From Karstenula rhodostoma CBS 690.94 (Eukaryota > Ascomycota > Dothideomycetes > Pleosporales > Didymosphaeriaceae): a stretch of DNA of 17,074 bases. The notes beneath the pieces were generated by a model. The model saw nothing but the letters and a program-made list of their open reading frames with translations. It did no database searches and was not told the origin of the DNA. Below are positions 1 to 17,074 of the stretch, in pieces (within the stretch, counting starts at the first letter, position 1; each line of letters begins with the position of its first letter). The stretch spans positions 52,365 to 69,438 of the forward strand of contig MU001507.1 of the NCBI GenBank assembly GCA_010093485.1. Direction: 5' to 3'. The translations under genes were made by a program, and so were the position numbers.

Positions 1-130
1 TAAGATCTTGGTATATTTTAGTAACTAAAATTATTTTTTTTAATTTAGGCCTAGGTATTTTTTTACTTTAGCGAATGTACAGGCCATTATTTTCCCACTT
101 AGGGCCCTAAAGTAAGGAGGCCTATATATA
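1..130. other. Less-RIPed left flank
   Basis: This short stretch differs in base usage from the rest of the window. It keeps two TpG (9-10, 76-77), three CpA (80-81, 85-86, 96-97) and one CpG (72-73), whereas the next 16.9 kb keeps five CpA/TpG in total. The last of these is at base 97, and homology between the two long direct repeats starts at about 131. I read this as the edge of the repeated, RIP-mutated block, with single-copy or less affected sequence to the left. No gene can be called in 130 bases. A 12-base palindrome at 99-110 (TTAGGGCCCTAA) looks like two head-to-head telomere units, but it is a single copy and probably chance. Confidence 0.6.
46..124. repeat. Imperfect inverted repeat at block edge
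   Basis: The left arm has TAGGCCT (46-52) and TTACTTTAG (63-71). The right arm has CTAAAGTAA (107-115) and AGGCCTA (118-124), the reverse complement in the correct order. The arms differ in internal spacing (10 against 2 bases). The enclosed 35 bases hold most of the surviving CpA, TpG and CpG. It could be a small inverted-repeat element or the terminus of a larger one. Only this copy is visible. Confidence 0.5.
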
Positions 131-140
131 TAGACTTAGC

Positions 141-2490
141 TAGGAATAATATAAATTAAAAATAATAAAAATTAAAATATAAATTAATTAGAGATATAGG
201 GGTACTATATAGTTTAAATAGAATTTCTATAATACTAGTAGAAGGTACTTTAAATTAGTAGGTTATACTAAGGTAGGTAAATAGGGGTAGAATAGAAGAA
301 AAAAACTATTAGCTTATAACTATTTTAATATAGTTAGAGTACTAAAAATAGTATTTAATTATACTATTATAGAAATAACTATAGATTATATAACTATTAT
401 ATAGGTAAATAAATATATTATATTTTATAGTAATTCTAGTAATAATTAAGCTATATATATTATAGTAATAGCTATTACTATATACTAGTAGACTAGAATA
501 AAGTATCTTAGCCTTAATAAAAATAGTAAAGTTTTTATAATTTTATAAAAAAAAATAGTTATTAAATAAATTATTTACTAATTTTTAAATTTTATATCTT
601 TATTTAGATATAGTAGTATTATAGTACTCTCTACTAAAGTAAAAAAATACCTTATTAAAAAAAAAAATATAGTAATATAATATATAGAATATAAAGTTAT
701 AAGCTTTATTAAAATAAATAAATATTACTTAGACTATAGTAAATAGAGGAGGTAGCCTTAATTTTAGCCCTAATCTAGATTAAAATTAGTAGGCTACTAA
801 AGTAAAGGGAATATATAGTACTATTTAATTTTAGCTATAGTCTAGACTAAAATTAAATAACTACTAAACTAAATTAGAAAAATATTATATATTAGTATAT
901 AATAAGAGTAATATAACTATTAGTATTAAATAATAAATATATTAGTAATAATAGTATATATACTATTAGATATTTATAAAGAAAAGAAACTAATTAAGAG
1001 TAATTTACTAAATATACTATAGTATATATATAAAACTATATATTTTAGGGGCCCTATATATAGAGAAGTATATAATAAAAATAGTTCTACTAGTAATATT
1101 TTTATAGTATCTATACTAGAGGATATAGTATAATAGGTATATTAATATACTTTAAAAAAGAATATTATCTAGTTTATTATATAAAAGTATAAGAGTTAGA
1201 TAATAAAAAATAAAGAAATTAATATTAAAAAAATATATAAAAACGCTAGTAAGATTAGTACTAAAAAAAGGTATATTAAAAAATAGAATAATAAAGAGGA
1301 GGACTAAGGTATAAAAAAAAAAAAAAAGGAATAACTAAAAAAAGTTAATATAAAAGAGGTAAATAAAAGACTAAAATAGAAGTTAAAAGAGGTAATAATA
1401 TAAAAAGTAATAAGTATATAAAATTTATCTATTATAATAGCTAAAAATATTATAATAAATAAAGAGGAGTAAAGGTATAAAAAGTTTATTTAGAGTTTAC
1501 TAGAAGTAGATATAAATATAATAGGTAATATAATTAGTAGAGTTATAGTAATTAAAGTAGTAAACTATTTATAGGATTAGAAAATAGTATTATAGGTATA
1601 AAAAGTATAGTATAAAAAAGGAAAAAGGTTCTTTACTAATATAAAAAATAAAGTAAGTAAACTTATAATAAGGGAAGGCACGTTATTTAGAGAAAATAAA
1701 AAAAGTAATATAAATTAAAAATAAGACTAGCTAGTATTATTATAGTATTTAAAATATATATATATAGAGTCTAGCCTTATAGGGGGGGATATAGTAAGGT
1801 TTATATTATTATATATAATAATAAAATAAGGCTAGACTATTAGAATTATTAGGGAGATAAGATAGTAATAGATATAAATAGTAATTTAGATAGAATTTAA
1901 AATAGTAGAAATAATAATATAGGAGTAAAAAGTATTATTTAGTAAATAAGGAAAAGGCTATATAACTATAGTAAAGGAATACTTATTTAAAGTTTTATAT
2001 TATATAGTAGAAGGGGAAAAAGCTATAAAATATATAGATTTATTTATATAAAAAGAGTTTAGAAAATAGCTAGAAATAGAAAAGAGGTAGTATATACTAA
2101 GGGTAAAGTTTAAAATTAAAATATTTATAATTTTATTTTAGAATACTATTTTAAATATATATATTAAAAGAGGTATAACTATAGTATAGTTTAGTTTTTA
2201 AATAAATATAATTATAAAGTATAATAAGGAGGTATTTAAAAGTTCTATAATAATTAAGGATATATATATTACCTATATAATAAATAGACTACCTCCTAAA
2301 AAATTATTACTAGAGAAACTATTAAATAGTAACTTAGTAAGATATAACTTAGTAAAAGGTTTATAGCTAGTATATTATACTATTAAAAAGGAAAATTTTA
2401 GTAATATTAATATATAGAAGGATATACCTTATAATAGGGGTTAATAGAAAAGTTTAGATATATATAAAGGATTATACTAAGAGGGGCTAT
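141..2490 (+). pseudogene. RIP-killed ORF of about 770 codons in copy A, function unknown
   Basis: One frame (codons starting at positions divisible by 3) can be followed from about 300 to 2480 if TAA/TAG are read as former CAA, CAG, TGG or CGA. Stops are unevenly spaced, with long clean runs at 603-670 and 2220-2340. Residues 375-440 or so (1263-1440) are Lys/Glu/Gln-rich with no proline, suggesting a coiled coil or basic nucleic-acid-binding region. The C-terminal part contains a Leu-Pro-Pro-Lys-Lys stretch (about 2289) and a Leu/Asn-rich helix-like segment. No ATG survives, so the start is a guess at the repeat edge. The end is placed before the palindrome at 2484. Copy B carries the same frame. 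I do not recognise the family and see no zinc-finger, DDE or RT signature, but RIP erases Cys, His, Gln and Trp codons, so absence means little. Confidence 0.45.
752..857. repeat. Two adjacent hairpins sharing one stem sequence
   Basis: Hairpin 1 (752-797) has outer arms GTAGCCT (752-758) and AGGCTAC (791-797) and inner arms TAATTTTAG / TTAAAATTA. Hairpin 2 (824-857) has perfect 11-base arms, TTTAATTTTAG (824-834) and CTAAAATTAAA (847-857). Both stems use the same TTAATTTTAG sequence and both loops contain TCTAGA or a near match, so they look like a duplicated palindrome. Both persist in copy B (about 15202-15307) with RIP-type changes. They lie inside the long frame of copy A. They could be a terminal or binding repeat of an older insertion. 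Confidence 0.6.
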
Positions 2491-2519
2491 AGAAAAGTTA
2501 TAAACTTTTATAATTACCC
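2484..2519. repeat. GC-capped palindrome at the 3' end of copy A
   Basis: GGGG and CCCC cap an interrupted inverted repeat with arms GAAAAGTT and AACTTTT. It is a member of the dispersed palindrome family described in the findings. The copy B counterpart (about 16932-16968) is more perfect and lacks two bases in the loop. It sits between the end of the long frame and the tandem array, and could act as a transcript-end hairpin or be a mobile palindrome. Confidence 0.6.
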
Positions 2520-2540
2520 CTATTATAATTTCTAGATATT

Positions 2541-2859
2541 AGGTATTAGTTAATAGAATAATTAGTATTAGTTAATAGGATACTAGATATTAGTTAATAA
2601 AATAATTAGTATTAATTAATAAAATATTAAATATTAGTTAATAGAATAATTAGTATTAATTAATAGGATATTAAGTATTAGTTAATAGAATAATTAGTAT
2701 TAGTTAATAGAATATTAAGTATTAGTTAATAGAATAATTAGTATTAATTAATAGGATATTAAGTATTAATTAATAGGATAATTAGTATTAGTTAATAGAT
2801 AGAATAATTAGTATTAGTTAATAGAATACTAGATATTAATTAATAGGATATTAGGTATT
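2541..2859. repeat. Tandem array with alternating 23- and 21-base units (44-base period)
   Basis: Fourteen subunits begin AGTATTAGTTAATAG or close variants. Lengths alternate strictly 23, 21 for the first ten subunits (2541-2760), giving a 44-base higher-order period. The last subunits depart from this (23, 26, 21, 22). Differences between units are mostly A/G and T/C, as RIP would leave. Copy B shows the same array starting at about 16989 with a different unit order, and it is cut by the window end. The array is non-coding and lies just downstream of the long plus-strand frame. Confidence 0.85.
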
Positions 2860-3142
2860 ATTACTTTATATATATATTACTTTTTATAGGATATATAGTA
2901 TATATTCTATAATTTAATATACTTAGTAATTATTTTAAGTTATATAGGGTATTATAATAATATAGAATATAGTTAATAGGTTTATACTATTTAATATCTA
3001 TATATAATCTTCTCTACTTTTACTAGAATAATTACCCCCTATTAATTTATAATTTAAATACTAATACTATATACTAACTATATTTATATATACTTTAAAT
3101 ACTAATACTATTTATACTCTAAATACTAATACTATTTATATA
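2860..3142. other. Gene-free AT-rich spacer
   Basis: No coding frame stands out. The stretch lies between the tandem array of copy A and the minus-strand relic that ends at about 3143, so two relics converge here. A short degenerate repeat with AAATACTAATACTAT appears at 3056, 3097 and 3121, the last two being 24 bases apart. The C/G-rich islands are short runs such as CCCCC near 3034. Confidence 0.5.
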
Positions 3143-4020
3143 CTAATATTATATATTATATTATTATATTATACTTAGAATTAGATAGGGGGTTTATAGG
3201 AAAGTTTACTATAAGCCCCCTAGCTATATTTAGTCTACCTATTATTTATAAAGATATTTAGATTTTTTATAGTATATATTCTAAAATATTTATATATATT
3301 AAAGTTATTACTAGTATTATTATAAGGGTAGTTACTAAGCTTATTTATTATAAATAATAAATTACTAGAATATCTAAATAGTTACTTTTTTTTTTCCTTT
3401 TTAAGTATATATTTTTTAAATACCTATATCTACTTCTTATCTAGATTACCTAATTCTAACTATATAAACTAGTTTACTAAATTAGTAAAATATATATTTT
3501 TAATTATTTAGACTATATTTATTATAATATCTATAATATACTTATTATACTTCTTTTATAATATTATCTATTTAAGACTATCTTCCTTATAATTATAGAG
3601 GTAAATAAACTCGTCCTAGTTAGTTTTAATATCTATATTATTAAAGAGTAAAGTAATACTATACTTTTTTTTTATAGGTAGTACTACTTAGTACTATATT
3701 TATATAAATAGGTTTAGGGGTATTAAAACTATAAATACCTCTAATTAACTAGACTAGAATTTAGTAGTATAGAAAATTACTTTTTAATTCTCTATTATAT
3801 CCCTAAAAATACTAAATTCTATCTAGTTATTTAGAAAAAATAAGTAGTATATATTATTAAAAAAAAAAGCCTTTTATACTTTATAAATTATACTAATAAT
3901 AGTATAGATATTATTTTATTATTAGTAATTATAAGTCTTCCTTATAGGTTAGTTAGTAGAGTACTTATTAGAATTAAATAATCTATAAAAGAGTTAAAAT
4001 ATATTATATACTTATATTAT
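3143..4020 (-). pseudogene. RIP-killed ORF, about 270-290 codons, function unknown
   Basis: On the minus strand one frame (codons starting at positions divisible by 3) runs from about 4020 to about 3239 and may continue to 3143. Stops are all RIP-convertible. The start is placed at two ATA codons (4020-4015, presumed former ATG) because a 45-base purine-only tract (CT-rich on this strand) lies just upstream, as is common in fungal promoters. The C-terminal part has a Lys-rich segment, KKYILKKEKKKQLFR in the mutated reading (about 3421-3360). A GC-capped palindrome (3189-3221) lies near the 3' end. Splice-like signals there (GTAGAC at 3238) are weak, and reading through is also possible. I do not recognise the family. 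The same strand carries two more relics upstream. Confidence 0.4.
3189..3221. repeat. GC-capped palindrome
   Basis: GGGGG and CCCCC cap arms TTATAG / CTATAA around GAAAGTTTA. It belongs to the dispersed family with core AGAAAAGTTTTCT. It lies near the 3' end of the minus-strand relic at 3143-4020. Confidence 0.6.
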
Positions 4021-4057
4021 AGAATAGTAGGTAAAAAAGTAGTTTAGAAAAGATAGT

Positions 4058-4102
4058 AGAGAGGAGAGAGAGGGGAAAAGAGAGAAAAAAAGAAAAAAGA
4101 AG
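4058..4102 (-). promoter_or_regulatory. 45-base purine-only tract (CT-rich promoter-like on minus strand)
   Basis: Every base from 4058 to 4102 is A or G on the plus strand, so the minus strand has an unbroken pyrimidine tract with CTCTCTCC-like runs. Pyrimidine tracts just upstream of start sites are common in filamentous fungi, and this one lies 38 bases before the presumed start of the 3143-4020 relic. RIP cannot alter such a tract, since it has no pyrimidine-purine step, so it may simply be a preserved original. It could also form a triplex structure. Confidence 0.4.
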
Positions 4103-4374
4103 TTATAAAATAATTACTAAATTATAAATAAATATTTTAATAAATCTACCTATATAATAGTATATAAAATATTACTAGATTATACTATTTAAAATAAAGA
4201 TTATAGTAAAGACTACTATAGTAGATTTTTAATACTATAATAAAAAAATATAAGTAAATAGTAAAATATATTTATAAATTAGAACTATCTATACTAACTA
4301 TTATTATATAGTTCTAGACTATAATCCTACTTTAATCTCTATTACTATTATTTTATAATTCTAGACTATAACTC

Positions 4375-4488
4375 TATTTTAATTTTTATTCTTTATTTTA
4401 GTTTCTATTTCCTATTTTAGTTTTTATCCTCTATTTTAGTTTCTATCCTCTATTTTAATCTTTATCCCCTACTTTAATTTCTATTATA
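4375..4488. repeat. 19-base tandem repeat, six exact-length units
   Basis: Units start at 4375, 4394, 4413, 4432, 4451 and 4470, all near TATTTTAGTTTCTATCCTC. A related 47-base duplication lies just before it, with TTCTAGACTATAA at 4312 and 4359. If the minus-strand frame from upstream continues through, three units make 57 bases and encode a basic Lys/Gln/Arg-rich tail with a 19-residue period. Otherwise it is a 3' untranslated repeat. Differences between units are mainly C/T. Confidence 0.85.
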
Positions 4489-5483
4489 CTATAATTATAT
4501 AATACTACTTACTATTTTTTCTTTCTACTACTTCTATTAGACTTCTTTAGTACTATAATTAAATAGTCTATATTTTTTAAATTCTTATAGGCCTTAACTT
4601 ACTTTATAATCTAACTATATTTTTATATATTTAGAGGTATAAGATTACTAAAAGATAGATAATATATTAAATATTATTTTATATAATTAAGTATATTCTA
4701 TATACTATACTTATCTAGATACTTTTTAATATCTAATATTTACTTATTAGAACTCTACTCTATATTAGCTTTTTAGGTAGCCTTAAGTATTTCTATATAG
4801 GTATTATTAAATATCTAGAAACTATTATATTATATAGAAATAATAGTTAGATAAGTATTTTATAAATCTATTCTAGTATTTTTAGTATATTTATTAAGTT
4901 TTATCTATATTCTAAATAGTATATTACTTACCTTTAAAATATAGTTTATAAAGTAGGCTATATTAGATTTTTTTTTCTTTTTAGGTATAGATTTAGTATA
5001 GAAGATATTATTTAAATTAAAACTATATTTCTCTATTTAGACTACTTTATATATATTTAATTTTAACTACTCTAATTTAATAATATCCTCGGTAAAGTTA
5101 TTTAAAAAACTAGATATTTTAGTAATAATTCTAGTAAAAGTAGAGGCTATAAGAGTATATATTATAATAGAAAATAAAACTAAAATAGACTACTATTTAA
5201 AAAAATACTTATAGTTTTTATACTCCTTTTTAATAAACTTTATAGTATATTTACTAAAGATAAAGAGATATTTATAGTTAGTATTATTAAAGGCTATATT
5301 ATACTTAGACCTTTTAATAAAAGTATCTAGTATATTTTTATATACCTAAGTAATAATATTCTCTAGAATATTAAAAATTTTAGTAAACTCCTTAATATTA
5401 TTTTCCTTAATAGTATAGTTAAAGAAAGTAGATACTAATACTAGTAAAGTAAGTAGGTTTTTACTAGAAAAGTTAGTAAGGAT

Positions 5484-5516
5484 AGTTATTATATAGGGGG
5501 TATATAGAAAAGTTTC
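5484..5516. repeat. GC-capped palindrome motif inside ORF2
   Basis: GGGGG (about 5497-5501) is followed by TATATAGAAAAGTTTCTAGA. It is a dispersed-family member whose right cap is missing. On the minus strand it reads as part of ORF2 (Thr-Phe-Leu-Tyr-Thr-Pro). It lies between a GTAAGT (5544-5539) and a TACTAAC (5478-5472) followed by CTAG, so an 81-base intron is an alternative reading that also keeps frame. Confidence 0.5.
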
Positions 5517-6630
5517 TAGAGTATCTCTAAATAAATTAACTTACCTATATTACTAGATATTATATATTCCTTAGATAGTAATATAAAAGAAATATATATT
5601 TAAATATTAATTATTTTAGTATTAATATTTAAAAACCTAGTCCTCTATATTTTAGTTTAAGGGAAAATCTATAAGAGTACTAATATAATTATTATTCTAG
5701 AGGTTATAGCTAGTACTAAATATCTAGAAAAATATAAAGAAAATATAAATCTTAGTTTTAGTACTATTCTAAAGAGATTAAACCTAATTATACTAAATTA
5801 TACTATTAGAGGAGTAAACTAAAAATAGTATATACTTTAATAATTTAAGAATCTTTTAAATAAGCTTCTAAATTAGAAGTATAAAAAACTATAAAATAAT
5901 CTTTTTATTATAAACTAGAGTCTAGTCTATAATAAGGGCTATAATTACTTATATTTTTAGTAAGTATTTAAGAAACTTATAGATAAGCTAGATATTATTA
6001 AGCTTATTCTAGTTAATATTATTAGAAATAGTATTATAACCTATATCTAGTATCTTTTTAAATAATTACTAAATATAATTACCGTATTCTTTTAGACTAT
6101 CCTTAGGGAGTATATTATATTCTTTAAAGAGGGGGAACTAGTTATAAAATTAGAATTTATAGTCTAAGTTATACTTTAGATTAAAGTAATTATTACTATA
6201 TTTATATATAGAGTTTTTAGATTACTTTTCTATATTAACCTTAATATATAGGTATCTAAAAAAAGGGTAAAACTTAATAATTTAAATAGTTTTTTAAGTA
6301 TAGATATTAACTATAGAAATATTTTAATTACTAGAACTTTTATATATTATAAATATATATTTAGACTAATATATAAACTAGTTATTATAGATATACTTAT
6401 TTAATAGTATAAATATTTACTTAATAGTATAATAATATTTTAGTAGAATAAACTAGCTAATAATATTTCTAAATTTAGAAATAATAATACTATTAAAATT
6501 ATATTTAAATACGAAATATATTATAGTTAATTATATAAGTTTTCCTTAAGTAATCTATTTATTATAAGTAGGGCTTAGGATATTTATTATAAACTCTATC
6601 TAGTTACTATATAAAAATCTAAAGTACACG

Positions 6631-6700
6631 CTATATATTATTAATATATATTAAAGGGGAATATAGAAAAGTTTTCTAATTTCCCTATAGGGGAACTTAC
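6631..6700 (-). other. Candidate 70-base intron joining ORF1 to ORF2, containing the palindrome
   Basis: The donor is GTAAGT (6700-6695, minus strand) and the acceptor is TATATAG ending at 6631. A weak branch-like ATTAATA lies about 15 bases before the acceptor. Removing these 70 bases (not a multiple of 3) joins the two long frames exactly: codon AA|C then GTG, TAC, TTT and so on. The segment holds a dispersed palindrome, GGGG-AATATAGAAAAGTTTTCT-AATTTCCC (6656-6686). Alternatives are two separate overlapping genes, or a frame-shifting insertion of the palindrome. Confidence 0.45.
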
Positions 6701-7534
6701 TTAAAATCCTCCTTATTAAATAGGTAGGGGTTATTATAATCTAGATAGAACCCTATAATATAGCTAGTTTTAGCTAACTCTTTATAATATTTATCCTCCT
6801 ATTTAGTAAACTTATTAAAGAGGTTTAGATCCTCTAGTAATTTTAAATAGTTTTTAATATTTTCTATACTCCTAGATATAGAATAGCCTAATAATAAAAA
6901 TAATTTATATAAATATAACTATAAAATAGTCCTTTATATAGAGCTCTAATTTTATAGAAAGTTTTATACCTTATTATAAAATATTAGCCTAAACTTATAA
7001 TTAAAAGTATAGATATACTTACTTAGGGGTTTAGTTAATAGGAAATTAGGCTATATCTTATAGTCCTAAAAGTTAAACTTATCTAGCTTAAAACTATTCT
7101 TTTTAGTAAATAATTTAATATTCTTCTTAATATAGGACTAGAAAGTATAAGGGCCGGTAAACTTAGCTATATAATTATAGGAGGCTATAAAAATAGTATA
7201 CTAATTATAAAAATTTTTATAGTTTTAAATACTTAAATTAGTATTAGAAAAACTAGTAACTACTTTAAAACTAGATATAACTAATAACTTATTAGAGAAG
7301 ATTATAAAGATAGTAAAGTAAATTAATATCTATATAAGCTTAGTTATTATTTAATAGTAAAGTCTAGCTAAAATAAGATAAAAAAAGGGCCTAGATTTAT
7401 TTCTAAACTATTTATAATTTAAGTTTATAGTAGGCTAGATAGATTACTTTTTATAAATATTAGTAAGCTTTAGATTAAGGTAATATTTATAATCTAGTAT
7501 AATTTATAATAAGTTAGTAAAGTAAAATAAAGTA

Positions 7535-7570
7535 TAATTAGAGGGTTTATAAAAAAGTTTTCTATAAATC
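7535..7570. repeat. Palindrome-family copy inside ORF1
   Basis: GAGGG-TTTATAAAAAAGTTTTCTATAAATC has arms TTTATA / TATAAA around the AAAAGTTTTCT core. G/A changes in the left cap are as RIP would make. It is in frame in ORF1 as Arg-Lys-Leu-Phe-Tyr-Lys-Pro, a different frame from the copy at 5500. Confidence 0.5.
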
Positions 7571-9202
7571 TACTAGAAATATATTTTAAATATAATTACC
7601 CCTACTTAAATAGTTTTATTTAATTTAATTATATTAGTAATAATTTTACCTTTAATAGATACTACTTTATTAATACTAGCTAGTATATTAGTTATTTATT
7701 TTATAGTAACTACTTATTACTATTTAAGAGAGAATATTATATATAGTATTAATTTATATCTTATATTAATAATATATATAAAGGTATAAACCTCTTTAAG
7801 GTATATTAGAATAAATATACTATTATTACTATCTATTTTAAAAATTTCCACGCTATAGTTATTAACTTATTTAATAGGAAGAGATATTATATTAGCTATT
7901 TTATTTTATTTACTTCTTTATAATATATTATAATTATCCTCTACTATAATATTTTTAATATTCTTATAAATTATTTCTATTTTCTCTTTAGTAATTACTT
8001 CTAGTATATAAGATACTAATATACCGTCCTCTACTATAGGCTAAAAAGCTAGTAGAGTAATTTTTAAGTATTTTTAATAAAGATTATTAGTTATATAGAT
8101 AATTAGATTTTTAATATAATTAAAGTCTATAATAGTCTTAATATTATATAAATAATACTTTATATACTTCTAGAGTATATTAATAAAAACTCTATATAAC
8201 TAGTATTTTATAGTATCTATATTTATTATATAAACTATTATTAGGTATAAATATATAAACTTTTCTAGCTAGGTCTTAGTAGTTAGATTTTATAAAGTAC
8301 GAGTATTTTATTTTTTAATATTAGCTAGAAAAGATATAAAGACTTCCTTATTTAATATTTCTTAGATATATTATAGCTCTATTATATTAGAGATAGTATT
8401 ATTATAGATAAATAAATTCTCCTCTAGCTTAGAAATTAAATTAGGGTTACTAACCTTTAACTATTTTATAGCCAGGTAAGAAGATATACTTTAAAAGCTA
8501 ATATTATTAACTATCTTTTATATAGCTTATATATTTATTTTTCTATTCTATACTCTAATAATACTAAATTATATTTATATAGTAAGGGTCTTTATATAAC
8601 CCTTTTAGATTAATATTACTAAGTTTTTAAAAATATATACTTTATTAAGGGGTTAGTTTAACTATAAAATAATTTTATAACTAATCTATAGGTATATAAG
8701 GATTATATCTTCTTTCTTAATTTTTACTTAGTTAAAAAATAATTATATAGGTTAGGTAAAAATATACTCTACCTTTTTTATAAAATAGGCCTAATAGAAT
8801 ACTAGATTTTAGAACTATTATACTTTAAATAAAGTAGTAAGTAATAGAATTTTATCTATCTTTAAAATACCCTCTTTAACTATTCTATCTAAACTTAGTA
8901 ACTATTTACTAAATTTAATATACTATATAATTTCTTTATAAACTAAAGTAATAAGTAGGTTTATAATATATATTTAAATAAAGATATTAGAAAATATAAT
9001 AAATATCTTATTAATAAAATCTCTAGAACTAGTAATCTATTTTAAAAAAGGTATTAAGTCTAATATATATAGAATTTTATTTATATAGACTAAAATTATT
9101 TTTATTTTATTAATTACTATATTCTCTATATCTCTACTATTACTATAATTAAATATTTTATTTTTAAAAAAAGTAATAGATATATTATCTAGTAGTTAAT
9201 TA

Positions 9203-9225
9203 TTAGGGGGGTAATTAGAAAAGTT
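9203..9225. repeat. Palindrome-family copy inside ORF1
   Basis: GGGGGG-TAATTAGAAAAGTTTT keeps the left half of the palindrome. The right half has decayed to AAAAAG. It reads as Asn-Phe-Ser-Asn-Tyr-Pro-Pro in the ORF1 frame, the third frame used by this DNA motif. Confidence 0.45.
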
Positions 9226-9490
9226 TTAAAAAGTATTTATATATCTAACTTATACTATAGAAGTAGAAGTATATAGATTTAATAATTTAGTATACTTTTA
9301 TTTTATAGCTAGATTAGGTATAATAAAACTAACTTTACTTAAGTCTAATTAAGATAAGAGAGGCTAGTTAGAGTTTAAATTATATTAGTTTAGAAAACTA
9401 AATTTATTAATATATTTCTTTAAATCTAGAATACTAAAAAAAGAGATTTCTATATTAGATAATATATTATAGGTATATAGAAGGTATTTA

Positions 9491-9700
9491 GAAAACTTTT
9501 TAATATTTCCCCTTAGACTAGTATAAAAGTATAATAATTATAAATATATAAAAATATATAGAAAACTTTTTAATATCCCCCCTTAGACTAGTATAAAAGT
9601 ATAGTAATTATAGATATATAAAGATATATAGGAAACTTTTTAATATCCCTCCTTATACTAGTATAGAAGTATAGTAGTAATAAATATAATAAGTATATTA
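9491..9700. repeat. 70-base tandem repeat, three copies, each with a palindrome half
   Basis: GAAAACTTTT begins at 9491, 9561 and (as GGAAACTTTT) 9631, exactly 70 apart. Each is followed by TAATAT, a C-run and CTTAGACTAGTATAAAAG. The unit is the dispersed motif in the opposite orientation to the copies in ORF1 and ORF2. Units differ mainly by transitions. The array lies at the presumed 5' end of ORF1, so it may be a promoter or leader repeat. Each unit also begins GTATAA and ends ACTAG, so tandem intron-like units are a remote possibility. Confidence 0.8.
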
Positions 9701-10321
9701 AACTAGTATAATTTTATAAATAGAAAAGAAGAAATAATAAAGAGAAAAAAAAACTATATACTAAATAATATTAGTAAATTAATTTCTATTATAATAGATT
9801 CTAATCTATATTAAGTTAGTAGTTACTATAAAAATTTATAGAAAAGTTTCTAGCTTATTACTTATTTAGTTAAAAGTAGCCTATTAGCTAGGGCTATATT
9901 ATTTAAGAATTCTTAGGAAAGTTTAGTATATCTAGTATTTTTTCTAGCTAAATTTAGTTAGTTACTATACTTATAATACTAGAGATATTATAATAGCTAA
10001 GGGTAATAGAAATAAAAGCTATAATAGAGATAGTAAAAGAGTATTAAAAAATAAAGTAGATAAGAATAGAGAGTAGAAAGGATAAAGAGTTTAAATAGTA
10101 TATATTTTATTTAAGTACTCTATTTATTTACCTATACTAAGCCTATATTATATAACTAGTATATTACCTAAATAAAAGACTTAAGTAAAAAATAATTATA
10201 CTTTATCTAGAATTAAATAGAGTATTAACTTATCTATATCTCCCTATAAAAGTATTTCTTATATATTACCTAATTATTAGTTTAGTAAAGTATAGATATA
10301 TAATATTACTATTCTTTCTAT
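9511..10321. other. Divergent intergenic region between ORF1 (-) and the plus-strand relic
   Basis: Reading frames here have more stops than in the flanking relics. The region holds most of the 70-base array, purine-rich patches (about 9722-9752 and 10020-10090, CT-rich on the minus strand, promoter-like for ORF1), and one core of the palindrome family at about 9834-9850. It would be the shared promoter region if the two large genes were divergently transcribed. I see no tRNA or other RNA gene. Confidence 0.4.
9806..9861 (-). other. Intron-like segment in the ORF1 leader
   Basis: On the minus strand GTAATAAG (donor at 9861), a perfect TACTAAC (9821-9815) and an ATAG acceptor (9807-9806) are spaced as in a 56-base fungal intron. 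TAGAAACTTTTCTATAAA, the dispersed motif core, lies between donor and branch site. It is upstream of the placed ORF1 start, so it could be a 5' leader intron. Other TACTAAC sites in this window lie inside coding frames, which lowers confidence. Confidence 0.3.
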
Positions 10322-13300
10322 TATATATCTAGTTCTCCTATATTCTAGTCCCTATTTTAGATATATAGTAGAAGTAGTTAGTTATATTATTCTAATATAA
10401 GGTATATTTTTATAATCTAGTTTAGTTTTAAAATAATCTTTTCTATTTTATAATTATCTCTAAAATTAACTATTTTTATAAAATATATTTTAAAATTATA
10501 TAATAAGTTTATATTCTATTTATCTCTTTTTATTTTCTTAATTTTATTAATTTATTTAGAGTATATAGCTTTATATTTATTCTAAAGGATAGTCTAAATA
10601 TTACGAATTATATATTTATTAATATAAAGACTTTATTAGGCTAGAATAATCCTTACTTTACTTATTTCTAGAAATATTTACTTTAGATAGTAGTTAATAG
10701 ATATTAGATAAAACTAGTAGTTATTTTTTATTTATTTATTATCTATAGTATATTAATAGGTTATAATAGTATTTTTAATATATTTAATTTAGCTATTATT
10801 AGTACTAGTATACTAATTTTATCTATATTTAAATAGGTTTTCTTTAATAAAGTAGGTAATATAGTATAGTCTCTAGTAGGCTATATAAATAGGTAATTTA
10901 TTATAAAATAATTTAGTATATAACTTACTAGTATTATTAGTATTTTATATAAAGAAGTTAAGTTTTCTTTTTTATTTAGTAGAAATAAAAGGTATATATA
11001 ATAGGGAGTTTACTATTTATAAATTAGAGTAGTATATTAGGGCTATATAGGTATAAATTTATCTTAGAAAAAGAATTATTTTATAAATATTATTATATCT
11101 CTATAAGTATAATTATAGGATATTAGAGTATATAAGGATAATAGACCCTAGTATATTAATATTAGTATTAATACTACTAATAGCTATCTTTTTAGTTAGA
11201 GAATTTATAATACTAAATAGAGTTAGTTTATATAAAAGAGTAGAATTTTAGTATATAAATATTATAAGGTTATTTAAAAGGGATATATATTATTCTTAAG
11301 GTATTACTATCTAGAAAACTATTAATAATAATATAATAGTAGACTTTATTTAGAGACTAGAGTTATATATAGATAAGAATAAATATTTTTACTATATTAC
11401 TAGCCTTATTAAAATATATATTAGGGATAGTATCTACTAGTACTAGTCTAGTAAGGCTAGATTTACTATTCTAACTAATTTATTTATTTATCTAAATAAG
11501 GCTATAGAAGTTTACTAGTAGTATAAAATATAGTATTATATATATATTTAATATATCTAGGCCTTTTATAAAGATACTTATAGCTATTATAGTATTTATT
11601 TCTAAAATTTAGAATTATACTAGACTTATAAATTATTCTTTTTTTTTTATTTTTCTATAGTACTTAGAATAGTTAAGCTATAGAACTAGTATATCTATAA
11701 TTATAATAAGGTTAATATAAATAAGGACCTTTTTATATAATTAGAAAATCTCTTTAATATATTTTACTATAGCTATTATAGGGTCTATACTTATTATATA
11801 TAAAATATAAATTTTATACTAGATTTTAGGCTAAATAGTAGACTCCCTAAAGGTTATAATATTAGTAGAAAGTTTAAGAAATTAAAAGGCTTAACTCTAT
11901 TTAATAGGTAGTAGAGTTATAGAGAAAAGTATAAGAGGAATATAATATTTAATAAGTATATAAAAATTATAAAAGTAAAAATAATAGATTATATTTAAGA
12001 AAATAATATAATAGAATTTATCTACTATAATCCTTTCTAATACTTCTAATACTTTTTACCTAGTAATATAGGCCTAGAAGAAATTATTTAAAATACTTTT
12101 AGAAGTTATTAGAATAATAGATACTTACTTATTATATACTCCTTACTACTATATAATAGTTTTAATTTATAATTTAGAATAATAATAAAAAAGGTTAGAA
12201 TAGAATACTACTAGTAAAATAATAATAATAGTCTAACTATAGTCTAGAAAATAAGTAAAAAGGAGAAAAAGAAGATTTTTACTAAATTTAGTACCTATAA
12301 TATAGATAACTATACTCTCCCCTATTAAAATTATATAGAAAGCTTACTTTTATTATTTTCTAAACTAGGTTAACTTTCTAAAATTCTTTTATAATAGTTA
12401 TACTATATTAATACCTAAATAATTAGAATAAATAACTTTTTTAACTTTCTAGAGAACCTCTTTCTTTTAGATTAAAAGAAATTCTAGAGTCTTATACTAC
12501 TTAGTAGATATCTTAAAATATACCTCTAAATTATTAAACTTATAAGTAAAAATTTTTAAGATATCTAGAATATAAATTATATAGGCTATTTCTAGTAAAT
12601 AGCTAGCTTATATTTTATAGACTTCTATTTCTACTTTATCTATTATTTTATTAACCTTCTTCTTTAATAGTTTCTATAATAGGTAATTAGTAGTAGAAAA
12701 CTTTTTACTAAAGATAATAAAGAAATAATATATTATATTAATATTAATTTCTTTTTCTATTTAATAAAGTATTACCTACCTTATAATATAACTAAAAGTC
12801 TAAAAAGTAATTTATTACTTACTAAGTAGGTTTAGTTAAAATAGATAGCTCTAGACTTAATTATAGTAATAGTTATATATCTCTTTATTAATTTATCCCT
12901 ATATAATAAGGTAGAAAGGACGAATAAGCTAGATATACTAAACTAAAAAACTATCTACTTTATAAAAAAAAAAATAGTAAATAGTCTTTATAGACTTATC
13001 TCTATTATAGCCCTTATAGAATTAAAAAATAATAATAATAAAATTATTATAGAGAAATATATTCTAGATACTAGTTATATAACTATTTTTAAGTTATAAG
13101 TTTAATACCTTAATACTATAGCTAGACTAGCTACTTATAAAGTATATAAAATCTAAAAATATACTAAAAAATTTTTAAATAAGGTTATAGTACTATTATA
13201 CCTAGGTATAGTTTTTAATACTAGTAAGTAGATAACCTTTAGAGCCCTTTATATTAAATAACTATAAAAGCTATTAAATAATAAAACTAATATTATACTT

Positions 13301-14560
13301 AAGTTATAAATTATCTATATTAAAGATACTAAAACTAAGAATTATATTTTTTAGATTTTCTTTTAGTATATTCTATAGAATAGAGGGTAGCCCTACCTAT
13401 ATTTATATAAATACTAGCTAGTAGAGAAGGATAAATACCTTCTTAAATAGGTTATTTACTATAGAAAAGAATAAAGTAAGGTTTATTCTAATTTTATAAA
13501 TAGTTATATTATCTCTATTCTAGTAGATAAAGGCGTCTAAATTCTTCCTATATTAAAAAGTATTAAGAAAGTATACTATATTAATAAACTAATTTATAGA
13601 GATAGAATACTCTATAGTAAGATAATTATATATTTATATTTTAAATATATTATATAATTCTCTATTCTAATTCTCTACCTTATAATTATCTAGCTTAGTA
13701 ATAAAAAAGCTAGCCTCCTTTTAAAAAACTAGTAAATTAGAATTAAAATAATCTAGAGCCTCTATAAATACTATATAGAGAAGTATATTTTAAAAATACT
13801 ATAAACTAGTAAATCTATATATTTTTTTAAGAGCTAATATATTAGTAATAAAATTATAAACCTCTTAAAATTTATTACCTTAGGGAAAGAGACTAAGGAA
13901 GGCTATTAGAGTAATAAGAATAAGTTTAAACTAAATAGACTAGTTAATTTATTCTAGTAAGGAGAGTTAGAAAGTATAATAATATTTTTTAAATAGATTT
14001 AAATATATATAGTTATAGTACTTTTTAATAATAAAGGGAACTTCTATTATATCTAAATAGGTTATAATCTATTTTTAAACTAGTTACTAATATTTTTATA
14101 AATAAAGGGTTTTAGGTTATATAGCCCTAGAAAATAAAGTATAAAAAAAAAAGAGGAAAATTTTCTAAAAAGGGTTAGTATAGTAAAAAGTAGAGTTTTA
14201 GTAAGATTTAATAAAAACTATAGGAATATTATATTTATACTTTTATATTATTTAGATTTATATAAAGTAGAAGGTTTTTATTACTATATTTTACTATATA
14301 TAAGCTATACTCTTTATAATAGTATATAGATAAAAAAGCTTAGATTTAAATTTAACTTTAGATATAGTAATAAATACTAGATATACTTACTATATAATAA
14401 TACTAGTAAAGACCTCTAAAAATCTAATATATACTATCTATAGGTTTATAGATATAGAAGATATACTAGATATAAATTATAGTTATTATTTCTATATATA
14501 CTATACCTATACTAAAGTATATTATAGCTAGAACTTTAAAAAAAAGGCTATACTATAATT
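10322..14560 (+). pseudogene. RIP-killed ORF of about 1,400 codons, function unknown (ORF4)
   Basis: One plus-strand frame (codon starts at positions equal to 2 modulo 3) is continuous from about 10322 to 14560 when TAA/TAG are read as former Gln, Trp or Arg codons. Stops thin out in the middle: 12722-13080 has only a handful in 120 codons. Clear protein-like runs include FLENLFLL (about 12449), KNNNNNKIIIEKYILDTSYI (13025 onward) and FKLNRLVNLF (about 13924). The region 10900-11250 is Leu/Ile/Val-rich in the mutated reading, but RIP turns Ala, Thr, Ser and Pro NCA codons into Val, Ile and Leu, so membrane calls are unsafe. I do not recognise the family. The start is uncertain (all ATG lost). 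The end lies just before copy B begins. Divergent from ORF1. Confidence 0.45.
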
Positions 14561-14590
14561 TAGTTATATAGTAGAAGTAATAGGCTTAAC

Positions 14591-16930
14591 TAGAAATAAT
14601 ATAGATTAAGAGTAATAAAAATTAAAATATAAATTAATTAGAAATATAAGAGTATTATATAGCTTAAATAAAATTTCTATAATACTAGTAAAAAGTACCT
14701 TAAATTAGTAGGTTATACTAAGGTAAATAAATAGGGATAGAATAGAAGAAAAGAATTATTAGCTTATAACTATTCTAATATAGTTAAAATACTAGAGACT
14801 ATATTTAATTATATTATTATAGAAATGGCTATAGATTATATAACTATTATATAGGTAGATAAATATATTATACTTTATAGTAGCTCTAGTAATAATTAAA
14901 CTATATATATTATAGTAATAGCTATTATTATATACTAGTAGACTAGAATAGAATACCTTAGCCTTAATAGGGATAATAAAGTTTTTATAGTTCTATAAAA
15001 AAGAATAGTTATTAGATAGATTATTAACTAATTCTTAAATTTTATATTTTTATTTAGGTATAATAGTATTATAGTACTCTCTACTAAAGTAAAAGAATAC
15101 CTTATTAGAAAGGAAAGTATAATAATATAATATATAAAATATAAAATTATAAACTTTATTAAAATAGATAAATATTACTTAGGCTATAATAAATAGGGAA
15201 GATAGCCTTAATTTTAGCCCTAATCTAGATTAAAATTAGTAGGTTATTAAGGTAGAGGGAATATATAGTATTATTTAATTTTAGCTATAATTTAGACTAA
15301 AATTAGATAACTACTAAGCTAGACTAGAAAAATATTATATATTAATATATAATAAGAATAATATAACTACTAATATTAAATAATAAATATATTAGTAATA
15401 ATAGTATATATACTATTAGATATTTATAAAGAAAAGGAACTAATTAAGAGTAATTTACTAAATATACTATAGTATATATATAAAACTATATATTCTAGGG
15501 GCCCTATATATAATAAAGTATATAATAAAAATAGTTTTACTAATAATATTTTTATAGTATCTATACTAGAGAATATAGTATAATAGGTATATTAATATAC
15601 TTTAAAAAAAAATATTATCTAGTTTATTATATAAAAGTATAAGAGTTAAATAGTAAAGAATAAAAAGACTAATATTAGAGAAATATATAAAAGTACTAAT
15701 AGGATTAATATTAAAAAAAGATATACTAAGAGATAGAATAATAAAGAGGAGAACTAAAGTATAAAAAAAAGAAGAAAAAAGTAGCTAAAAAAAGCTAGTA
15801 TAAAAGAGGTAAATAAGAGATTAAAGTAGAAGTTAAAAAAGATAATAGTATAAAAGGTAGTAGGTATATAAAACTTATTTACTATAATAGCTAAAAATAT
15901 TATAATAAGTAAAAAGGAGTAAAGGTATAAAAAGTTTATCTAGAATTTATTAGAAGTAGGTATAAATATAATAGGTAGTATAATTAATAGAACTATAGTA
16001 GTTAAAGTAATAGACTATTTATAAAATTAGAAAATAGTACTATAGATATAGAAAGTATAATATAAGAAGAGAAAGAGGTTCTTTACTAATATAAAAAATA
16101 AAGTAAGTAAACTTATAATAGAGAAAGATATATTATTTAAAAAAAATAAAGGAAGTAATATAAATTAAAAATAAGACTAGCTAGTACTATTATAGTATTT
16201 AAAAGGTATATATATAGAATCTAGTTTTATAGGAGGGGATATAATAAGGTTTATATTATTATATATAATAGTAAAATAGGACTAAACTATTAGAATTATT
16301 AGGGAGATAAGGTAGTAATAGATATAAATAGTAATTTAAATAAAATTTAAAGTAATAGAAATAATAGTATAAGAGTAAAAAGTATTATTTAGTAAATAAA
16401 AAAAAAGCTATATAACTATAATAAAGAAATACTTATTTAGAGTTTTATATTATATAGTAGAAGGGAAAGAAGCTATAGAGTATATAGACCTATTTATATA
16501 AAAAGAGTTTAGAAAATAACTAAAGATAGGAAAAAAGTAGTATATACTAAAAGTAAAGTTTAAAATTAAAATATTTATAATCTTACTTTAGAATACTATC
16601 TTAAATATATATATTAAAAAAGGTATAATTATAATATAGTTTAGCTTCTAAATAGATATAATTATAAAATATAATAAAAAGGTATTTAAGGATTTTATAA
16701 TAATTAAGGATATATATATTACCTATATAATAGATAAATTACCTTCTAAAAAATTATTACTAGAGAAATTATTAGATAGTAACTTAGTAAGATATAACTT
16801 AATAAAAGGTCTATAGCTAGTATATTATATTATTAAAGAGGAAAGTTTTAGTAATATTAGTATATAGAAAGATATACCTTATAATAGAGATTAATAAAAA
16901 AGTTTAGATATATATAAAGGATTATACTAA
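14591..16930 (+). pseudogene. RIP-killed ORF in copy B, same frame as copy A
   Basis: This has the same long frame as in copy A with no net frame-changing indel over about 2.3 kb, which argues the frame was intact when the copies arose. Differences from copy A are nearly all G/A and C/T. Where one copy has G or C and the other A or T, the G/C state is the likely ancestor, so the pair allows partial reconstruction of the unmutated protein. The Lys/Glu/Gln-rich middle is at about 15713-15890. No family is recognised. Confidence 0.45.
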
Positions 16931-16931
16931 G

Positions 16932-16968
16932 GGGGGCTATAGAAAAGTTAAACTTTTCTAACTACCCC
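16932..16968. repeat. GC-capped palindrome at the 3' end of copy B
   Basis: GGGGGG and CCCC cap arms GAAAAGTT / AACTTTTC, with a single A between. It is the best-preserved symmetrical member of the dispersed palindrome family. It matches the copy A site apart from two loop bases and several transitions. Confidence 0.65.
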
Positions 16969-16988: not shown

Positions 16989-17074
16989 AGGTATTAGTTA
17001 ATAGAATAATTAATATTAGTTAATAGAATAATTAGTATTAGTTAATAGAATATTAAGTATTAGTTAATAAAATA
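16989..17074. repeat. Start of tandem array, copy B
   Basis: Units of 20-23 bases starting AGTATTAGTTAATAG correspond to the array at 2541-2859. The second unit (22 bases) differs in length from its copy A counterpart (21), so units have been shuffled or resized between copies. The array runs off the window. Confidence 0.75.

What the first reader, a model, noticed from the sequence alone, without database searches (positions are those of the whole stretch)
2484..9850. Dispersed GC-capped palindrome with core AGAAAAGTTTTCT
Sites near 2484, 3189, 5500, 6656, 7541, 9206, 9835 and 16932, plus three in the 70-base array, share a C- or G-run, TATAGAAAAGTTTTCTATA and, at the best sites, the opposite run. 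In frames it is read in three different phases, so it spreads as DNA, not as a protein domain. It is absent from ORF4 as far as I see. It resembles in form the short mobile palindromes of fungal mitochondria, but here in RIPed nuclear-type DNA. It could be a mobile mini-palindrome, a protein-binding site or an intron-borne element.
Basis: partly seen in the sequence, partly recalled or inferred. Interest (0 to 1): 0.75.

Follow-up and report, generated by a model that had tools for sequence, protein, structure and literature searches.

The report
Fossil intron hairpins at chromosome ends
A short mirror-image DNA motif repeats inside a heavily mutated repeat at a fungus's chromosome ends, and it may well mark the remains of related introns that multiplied inside one now-dead gene rather than a mobile palindrome.

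Summary
The palindromes are real: 8 G-capped arms at 7 window sites against a mean of 0.02 in 300 shuffles; genome-wide, 239 matches to the capped arm against 1 for the reversed control. They do not look like a free repeat. The 100 rows listed of those 239 all lie within 150 kb of contig ends, and the fetched ones sit at fixed sites of one RIP-mutated subtelomeric repeat with at least 40 copies, some next to the telomere. No aligned copy has a gap at six sites checked. The conserved arm has one orientation, opposite to a dead minus-strand gene. In the least mutated full-length copy fetched, branch-point and acceptor motifs follow three of six sites on that strand, none on the other. At a fourth, a predicted 70-nt intron matches the gene's clearest frame jump. 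I read them as fossil, hairpin-cored, introner-like introns multiplied inside one transcription unit. Against: no RNA or intact relative, one predicted intron of the wrong length, several sites without good splice motifs, deeper coding dips elsewhere. Confidence about 0.5.

The parts
2437..2455 (-). Capped half-site in repeat B (GGGGTTAATAGAAAAGTTT on +)
   Evidence: the same half-site is listed about 14.1 kb from the ends of C1, C2, C9 and C10
2483..2520 (.). Palindrome at the end of repeat B; second copy at 16931-16968; no minus-strand acceptor signature
   Evidence: (D1, 84% between the two copies)
3188..3220 (-). Best-preserved palindrome in the window (33 nt, caps on both sides), about 434 nt from the contig end in telomere-adjacent copies; next to the end of the downstream coding signal
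3225..3985 (-). Stretch with periodic coding signal (second dead frame), mapped from L057 470-1230
4556..9506 (-). Main dead gene with periodic coding signal (mapped from L057 1770-6720); clearest frame jump at the 6631-6700 intron candidate
5464..5544 (-). Candidate intron 1 (81 nt: GTAAGT ... palindrome ... TACTAACTTTTCTAG)
   Evidence: its length does not fit the frames called on its two sides
5496..5531 (-). Palindrome inside candidate intron 1
6631..6700 (-). Candidate intron 2 (70 nt: GTAAGTT ... palindrome ... ATTAATAATATATAG); length mod 3 matches the frame jump; no CTAAC branch point
6655..6685 (-). Palindrome inside candidate intron 2
7504..7605 (-). Candidate intron 3 (102 nt; acceptor ACTAACTTATTATAG in L057, mutated to TATAA in this copy); the 5' end was chosen to fit the frame
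7541..7572 (-). Palindrome inside candidate intron 3
9203..9231 (-). Palindromic half-site in a weak dip of the coding signal; intron status unresolved
9481..9653 (-). Three palindromes in a 70-bp tandem array upstream of the main coding signal
   Evidence: (D3); caps seen in L057 and L058
9806..9861 (-). Candidate intron 5 (56 nt: GTAATAAGC ... half palindrome ... ACTAACTTAATATAG)
9906..9931 (-). Further half-site, 75 nt from the previous one
   Evidence: capped form listed at C10:7141
16931..16968 (.). Palindrome in the second copy of repeat B

Best explanation
The palindromes are the hairpin cores of related spliceosomal introns (introner-like introns) in a gene carried by a fungal subtelomeric repeat and transcribed towards the telomere. 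Each core is an oriented arm with a more variable partner arm. In sense it reads roughly GGGG..TATAG-AAACTTTCC-TATAAACCCC, and it lies between the 5' splice site and a branch point followed by TAG. The unit multiplied within the transcription unit, leaving dispersed copies in the gene body and a tandem 70-bp array plus further copies at its 5' end. RIP killed the gene, and the dead repeat stands at many chromosome ends, with the palindromes at the same places in each copy. Shown: the repeat, its subtelomeric position, the fixed oriented sites, a periodic coding signal on the minus strand. Inferred: that the sites were spliced, that they multiplied as introns, and the order of events.
For: Oriented arm: + hits 9, 8, 7 and 8 in four long sequences, - hits 2, 1, 2 and 2, each - hit being the partner arm of a palindrome already counted; one + hit (window 1784) is not a palindrome. 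Periodic coding signal on the minus strand with its clearest frame jump at site 6656, matching a predicted 70-nt intron mod 3. Coding signal is low at the four palindromes of the gene body (cross-validated, permutation P about 0.005 by best frame, 0.03 by labelled frame). CTAAC plus YAG 15-50 nt downstream on the minus strand at 3 of 6 sites in L057 (random mean 0.13, P 0.0004), 2 of 6 in each of L058, L059 and the window; plus strand 0, 1, 0 and 1 of 6. Of 4 such acceptor signatures on the minus strand of L057 (10 kb), 3 are at palindromes and share ACTAACTT. Of 15 pairs of candidate segments 9 beat all 300 shuffles, several alignments running past the palindrome to the branch point or acceptor.
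Against: No transcript, intact gene or relative was found, and the gene is unidentified. Candidate intron 1 (81 nt) has the wrong length mod 3 for the frames on its two sides. In the window copy only 2 of 9 minus-strand acceptor signatures are at palindromes, and 2 of 5 on the plus strand lie at or next to palindromes too; one of 7 on the plus strand of L057 overlaps a palindrome. Candidate intron 2, the one with the frame match, has no CTAAC. Sites 2437, 2484 and 9206 lack good splice motifs. The coding signal has deeper dips elsewhere (L057 3042, 5262, 5840), and other 90-base blocks away from palindromes also leave the main frame. The 5' parts of the candidate introns are not clearly alike. 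Folding is notable only for intron 3 (z -3.3) and intron 1 (z -2.0). The splice pattern was first seen by eye and tested on the same sequence and its homologous copies, so the P values are optimistic.
Confidence: 0.5

Rival explanations
1. A short non-autonomous mobile palindrome (a tiny MITE-like element) inserted at many places in the ancestral repeat, surviving mostly in introns and flanks.
For: About a dozen sites per unit, mostly not in tandem; near-perfect palindrome at the best sites; 4 of 6 two-capped sites in L057 are flanked by TA on both sides.
Against: One orientation; no aligned copy with a gap at six sites; capped matches listed only within 150 kb of contig ends (100 rows of 239); TA also stands before 9 of 14 other G-runs and after 7 of 9 C-runs in the window.
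Confidence: 0.18
2. A protein-binding or replication/chromatin site repeated within the subtelomeric repeat, conserved as DNA.
For: Palindromic form, same places in each aligned copy, found at chromosome ends.
Against: The second arm is poorly kept at several sites; some sites track features of the gene (frame jump, acceptor motifs); caps and core decay in many copies, also in this window.
Confidence: 0.15
3. Ordinary internal duplication of a noncoding piece (such as the 70-bp array at the gene's 5' end) by recombination, with no splicing or mobility involved.
For: Tandem array of three copies and two more copies 75 nt apart.
Against: The dispersed sites lie inside the coding signal, and no repeat of 40 nt or more joining them was listed.
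Confidence: 0.12
4. In-frame coding inserts, as with palindromic elements of some bacteria (recalled), read as peptide in different phases.
For: Two of the three phases of the motif have no stop, the third has one only in its TATAAACC form; at 9206 the frame can run on.
Against: Coding signal is low at the sites and a frame jump occurs at one of them.
Confidence: 0.05

Closest known systems
Fungal introner-like elements of Dothideomycetes (Collemare et al. 2015, PMC4457414: passages seen)
   Same: Related introns at more than one position of a gene; fungal; degeneration of copies; symmetry or stable structure as summarised in PMC8469720 (passages seen)
   Different: Here found only in one dead subtelomeric repeat family, not shown to be spliced, and only the hairpin and 3' part are clearly alike
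Symmetrical sister stwintrons and cropped sister introns of Hypoxylaceae (PMC8469720: outline, abstract and passages seen; PMC9024468 and PMC12403724: outlines and abstracts seen)
   Same: Introns built around a central palindrome, multiplied at new positions, no target duplications
   Different: Their palindrome is WTTCTAGAAA within 45-55 nt inverted repeats and the host genes are many; ours has another sequence, G/C caps and one host gene
TE-derived introners (Gozashti et al. 2022, PMC9860276: passages seen)
   Same: Multiplying introns; the paper calls ascomycetes an outlier for transposon signatures
   Different: No target duplication beyond a background TA here; no sign of spread over the genome
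Mobile palindromes of fungal mitochondria
   Same: Short GC-capped palindromes in AT-rich DNA
   Different: Nuclear, subtelomeric, one orientation, one repeat family

Membership tests
Fungal introner-like elements | Copies are spliceosomal introns with donor, branch point and acceptor | tested here: inconclusive
   Acceptor motifs at 3 of 6 sites in L057 and a frame jump at a fourth site; no RNA
Fungal introner-like elements | Clear sequence similarity between introns at non-homologous positions | tested here: inconclusive
   9 of 15 pairs beat 300 shuffles, mainly over the hairpin and 3' part; two segments had guessed bounds
Fungal introner-like elements | Spread over many genes of the genome | tested here: not met
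   Capped arm listed only within 150 kb of contig ends (100 rows listed of 239); an uncapped, diverged family elsewhere is not excluded
Fungal introner-like elements | Intron positions absent from orthologues | not testable with these tools
   No relative of this genome is held; protein search on the called frame empty
Hypoxylaceae sister stwintrons | Nested [D1,2] twin-intron structure | not tested
   Not searched for
MITE-like mobile palindrome | Presence/absence polymorphism | tested here: not met
   No gap in 10, 30, 33, 33, 3 and 3 aligned rows at six sites; one one-base gap in 3 rows of the array; repeat B sites not checked
MITE-like mobile palindrome | Target-site duplication | tested here: inconclusive
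   TA at 4 of 6 two-capped sites of L057 (one of them TATA), none at 2 of 6; TA is the usual flank of such runs here
MITE-like mobile palindrome | Both orientations | tested here: not met

The most novel reading that the evidence does not exclude
An introner-like intron family that multiplied only inside one subtelomeric transcription unit, between a tandem array at its 5' end and several positions of its own gene body, with a GC-capped palindrome as its mobile core, preserved as a RIP fossil and present at many chromosome ends.
Probability: 0.27. Interest if true: 0.65.

Novelty: new member of a known kind. Interest (0 to 1): 0.42.

Why it matters
How fungal introns multiply is open, and symmetric hairpins are a suspected part of it. 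A case in which dispersed copies sit in the same gene as a tandem array of the same unit would let source and target of intron multiplication be compared. RIP-mutated repeats could hold dead introner families that surveys of annotated introns would not see.

Tried and rejected
Free mobile palindrome: rejected as the leading reading because of orientation, fixation and the places listed. Near-matches of the core away from the repeat: 22 places in 20 fetched regions; none has G before and C after; 21 lie in AT-rich DNA (GC 0.15-0.26), several with shared flanks, and one (L047) in GC-50% DNA looks like chance. Some other listed places away from contig ends were not fetched, among them C3:2357070, C13:1254674 and three on C14 and five one-mismatch places of TAGGAAAGTTTCCTA on C3, C6, C9, C16 and C22.

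Gene identity: Pfam gave 0 families in 12 read-through frames; the plus strand of window 1-9800 and the minus strand of 1-2499 were not scanned. The first homologue search used a wrong frame (no hit). The second, residues 1-930 on the frame called, found nothing at E up to 10. A count of stops kept in every copy did not help, because stops stay in all copies in every frame.

Outside the genome: one exact pattern found 0 matches in viral and in prokaryote contigs; no fungal collection is open here. Eight literature searches, judged from listings and abstract starts, showed no palindrome of this kind in subtelomeric introns; most subscription papers are not in that library. PMC3510045 was seen in passages. 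The van der Burgt 2012 paper was seen only as a reference.

Target duplications and TA flanks: not informative. A both-caps regex was wrong and found 0.
Full report
Where it is. The window is C16:52365-69438 of a 44.3-Mb genome in 29 contigs. The DNA is about one unit of a subtelomeric repeat. Window 130-429 recurs at 14580-14879 with 89% identity, and the stretch from 2482 recurs with its palindrome at 16930 with 84%, so the unit is about 14.45 kb. Window 2925-12785 aligns in one piece, at 88% identity, with positions 170-10000 of contig C26, which starts with CCCTAA repeats. A 241-bp probe finds 40 places (40 scored of 52 candidates); a second probe 40 full-length places plus 2 weak partial ones (40 scored of 59 candidates).

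The core with up to two mismatches: 13 matches on both strands against 3.06 expected, 6 on + alone against 1.71 with a shuffle maximum of 7. The capped arm: eight (seven sites) against 0.02. Genome-wide, TAGAAAAGTTTTCTA with one mismatch gives 80 + 81 matches against 2 + 4 for the reversed control; the palindrome counts on both strands. The fully capped form gives 19 matches at 10 places against 0. The capped arm gives 124 + 115 against 1 + 0, with longer G-runs counted twice. Only 100 rows (87 places) of those are listed, on contigs C1 to C13; all lie within 150 kb of a contig end. The other 139 were not seen, and not each listed place was checked to lie in the repeat. TAGGAAAGTTTCCTA occurs exactly at 16 places, and with one mismatch 33 + 35 times in all against 0 + 1, so AGAAAAGTTTTCT is likely a further mutated version. 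A composite best form would be GGGGGTTTATAGGAAA-G-TTTCCTATAAACCCCC; this is an inference from several copies.

It does not look like a free repeat. Twenty regions with near-matches away from the repeat were fetched; of 22 matched places none has the two caps. In the repeat itself the palindromes are at fixed places: no gaps in 10, 30, 33, 33, 3 and 3 aligned rows at six sites, and one one-base gap in three rows of the array. Some rows may come from the same copy, and the sites of repeat B were not checked. So the palindromes were probably there before the repeat spread.

It is oriented. A scan for GGGGTTTATAGGAAAGTTT with up to four substitutions gives 9, 8, 7 and 8 hits on + in three 10-kb copies and the window, and 2, 1, 2 and 2 on -; each minus hit is the partner arm of a palindrome already counted, and one + hit (window 1784) is not a palindrome. 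A mobile palindrome should not care about strand. A transcript feature should.

There is a dead gene on the minus strand. Unsupervised three-periodic models, given only the sequence of three copies, find one frame over L057 6720-3930, another over 3840-1770, and a third over 1230-600. Within these, four 90-base blocks of L057 prefer another frame: those starting at 4830 (palindrome of site 7541), 4650, 4200 and 2850 (next to site 5500). The clearest jump, between 3930 and 3840, is where the palindrome of site 6656 lies. The splice motifs there predict an intron of 70 nt (L057 3914-3845), which shifts the frame by one, as seen. Sixty-base windows show no supported frame at the palindromes of sites 5500, 6656 and 7541 and little at 9206. 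A cross-validated version gives a permutation P of about 0.005 for the four sites by best frame and 0.03 by the labelled frame, but deeper dips occur elsewhere (3042, 5262 and 5840 in L057), so this is supporting evidence only.

Splice motifs. On the minus strand of L057 there are four CTAAC-N-YAG acceptor signatures in 10 kb. Three follow palindromes and read ACTAACTTAATATAG, ACTAACTTATTATAG and ACTAACTTTTCTAG; on the plus strand there are seven, one of which overlaps a palindrome. With six sites placed at random, 0.13 such signatures are expected within 15-50 nt downstream; three are seen (P 0.0004). In L058, L059 and the window it is two of six each (P 0.003 to 0.005). On the plus strand it is 0, 1, 0 and 1 of six. 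The copies are homologous, so these are not independent tests, and the pattern was first seen by eye. Asking for a GTA[AG]G donor upstream as well leaves 2, 1, 0 and 1 of six (P 0.0018, 0.027, 1 and 0.029). In the window itself two of nine minus-strand signatures are at palindromes, as are two of five on the plus strand; the acceptor of site 7541 reads TATAA instead of TATAG.

Likeness of the candidate introns. Of 15 pairs among six segments, nine score above all 300 shuffles (I1-I2, I1-I3, I1-I5, I1-I6, I2-I5, I2-I6, I3-I5, I3-I6, I5-I6). Several of these alignments run past the palindrome to the branch point or acceptor. The five pairs with the 9206 segment do not reach this, nor does I2-I3. 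The segment bounds for 9206 and 3188 were guesses. Folding z-scores are -3.3 and -2.0 for two segments and between -1.4 and -0.2 for the other four. The 70-bp array upstream of the main frame contains the same hairpin three times.

What does not fit. Candidate intron 1 is 81 nt, but the frames called on its two sides (frame 2, then frame 1) need a length of 2 mod 3; a later TAG would give 104 nt, but that acceptor lies far from the branch point. For candidate intron 3 I chose the 102-nt form because the frame is the same on both sides, so it is not independent support. Candidate intron 2 has no CTAAC. The sites in repeat B (2437 and 2484/16931) have no minus-strand acceptor. At 9206 the frame can run through.

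Comparison. Symmetric, multiplying introns are known in Hypoxylaceae (PMC8469720: abstract and passages; palindrome WTTCTAGAAA, no target duplications), and introner-like elements in Dothideomycetes (PMC4457414: passages). The survey of introners calls ascomycetes an outlier with respect to transposon signatures (PMC9860276: passages). The present motif has a different sequence and G/C caps and was found only in one dead subtelomeric repeat. If it is an introner-like family it would be a new, local one; the defining features 'spliced' and 'absent from orthologues' could not be settled.

Verdict. A real, oriented, repeat-borne hairpin motif, best read as the core of fossil introner-like introns in a RIP-killed subtelomeric gene. 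Moderate interest; the decisive evidence is an intact relative or RNA.

Noticed in passing
L021 about 95-190; also L017, L024, L026, L027: A short GC-rich stretch that largely escaped RIP sits directly between the telomere repeats and the AT-rich repeat at these five contig ends.
   Followed up: no
L024, telomere end (C24): Variant telomere repeats (GGGTTGGCAAGGGTTAG) interrupt the TTAGGG array near its inner edge.
   Followed up: no
window 2533-2860 and 16992-17074: A 22/44-bp tandem satellite lies between repeat B and the telomere-side end of the next unit; in telomere-adjacent copies telomere repeats and a GC-rich stretch stand at that place.
   Followed up: partly
L037, L038, L040, L044, L045, L048, L049, L054: Another AT-rich dispersed family with a conserved TAGAAAAGTTTACTA core but without caps on both sides.
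   Followed up: partly
window 10000-14500: Periodic coding-like signal continues beyond the palindrome region without a capped arm; gene unidentified.
   Followed up: partly
copies of the repeat fetched: CA and TG are very rare in the copies fetched (for example 45 CA and 9 TG in 10 kb of L057, the least mutated of three), so RIP is nearly saturated; copies still differ by about 10%.
   Followed up: partly
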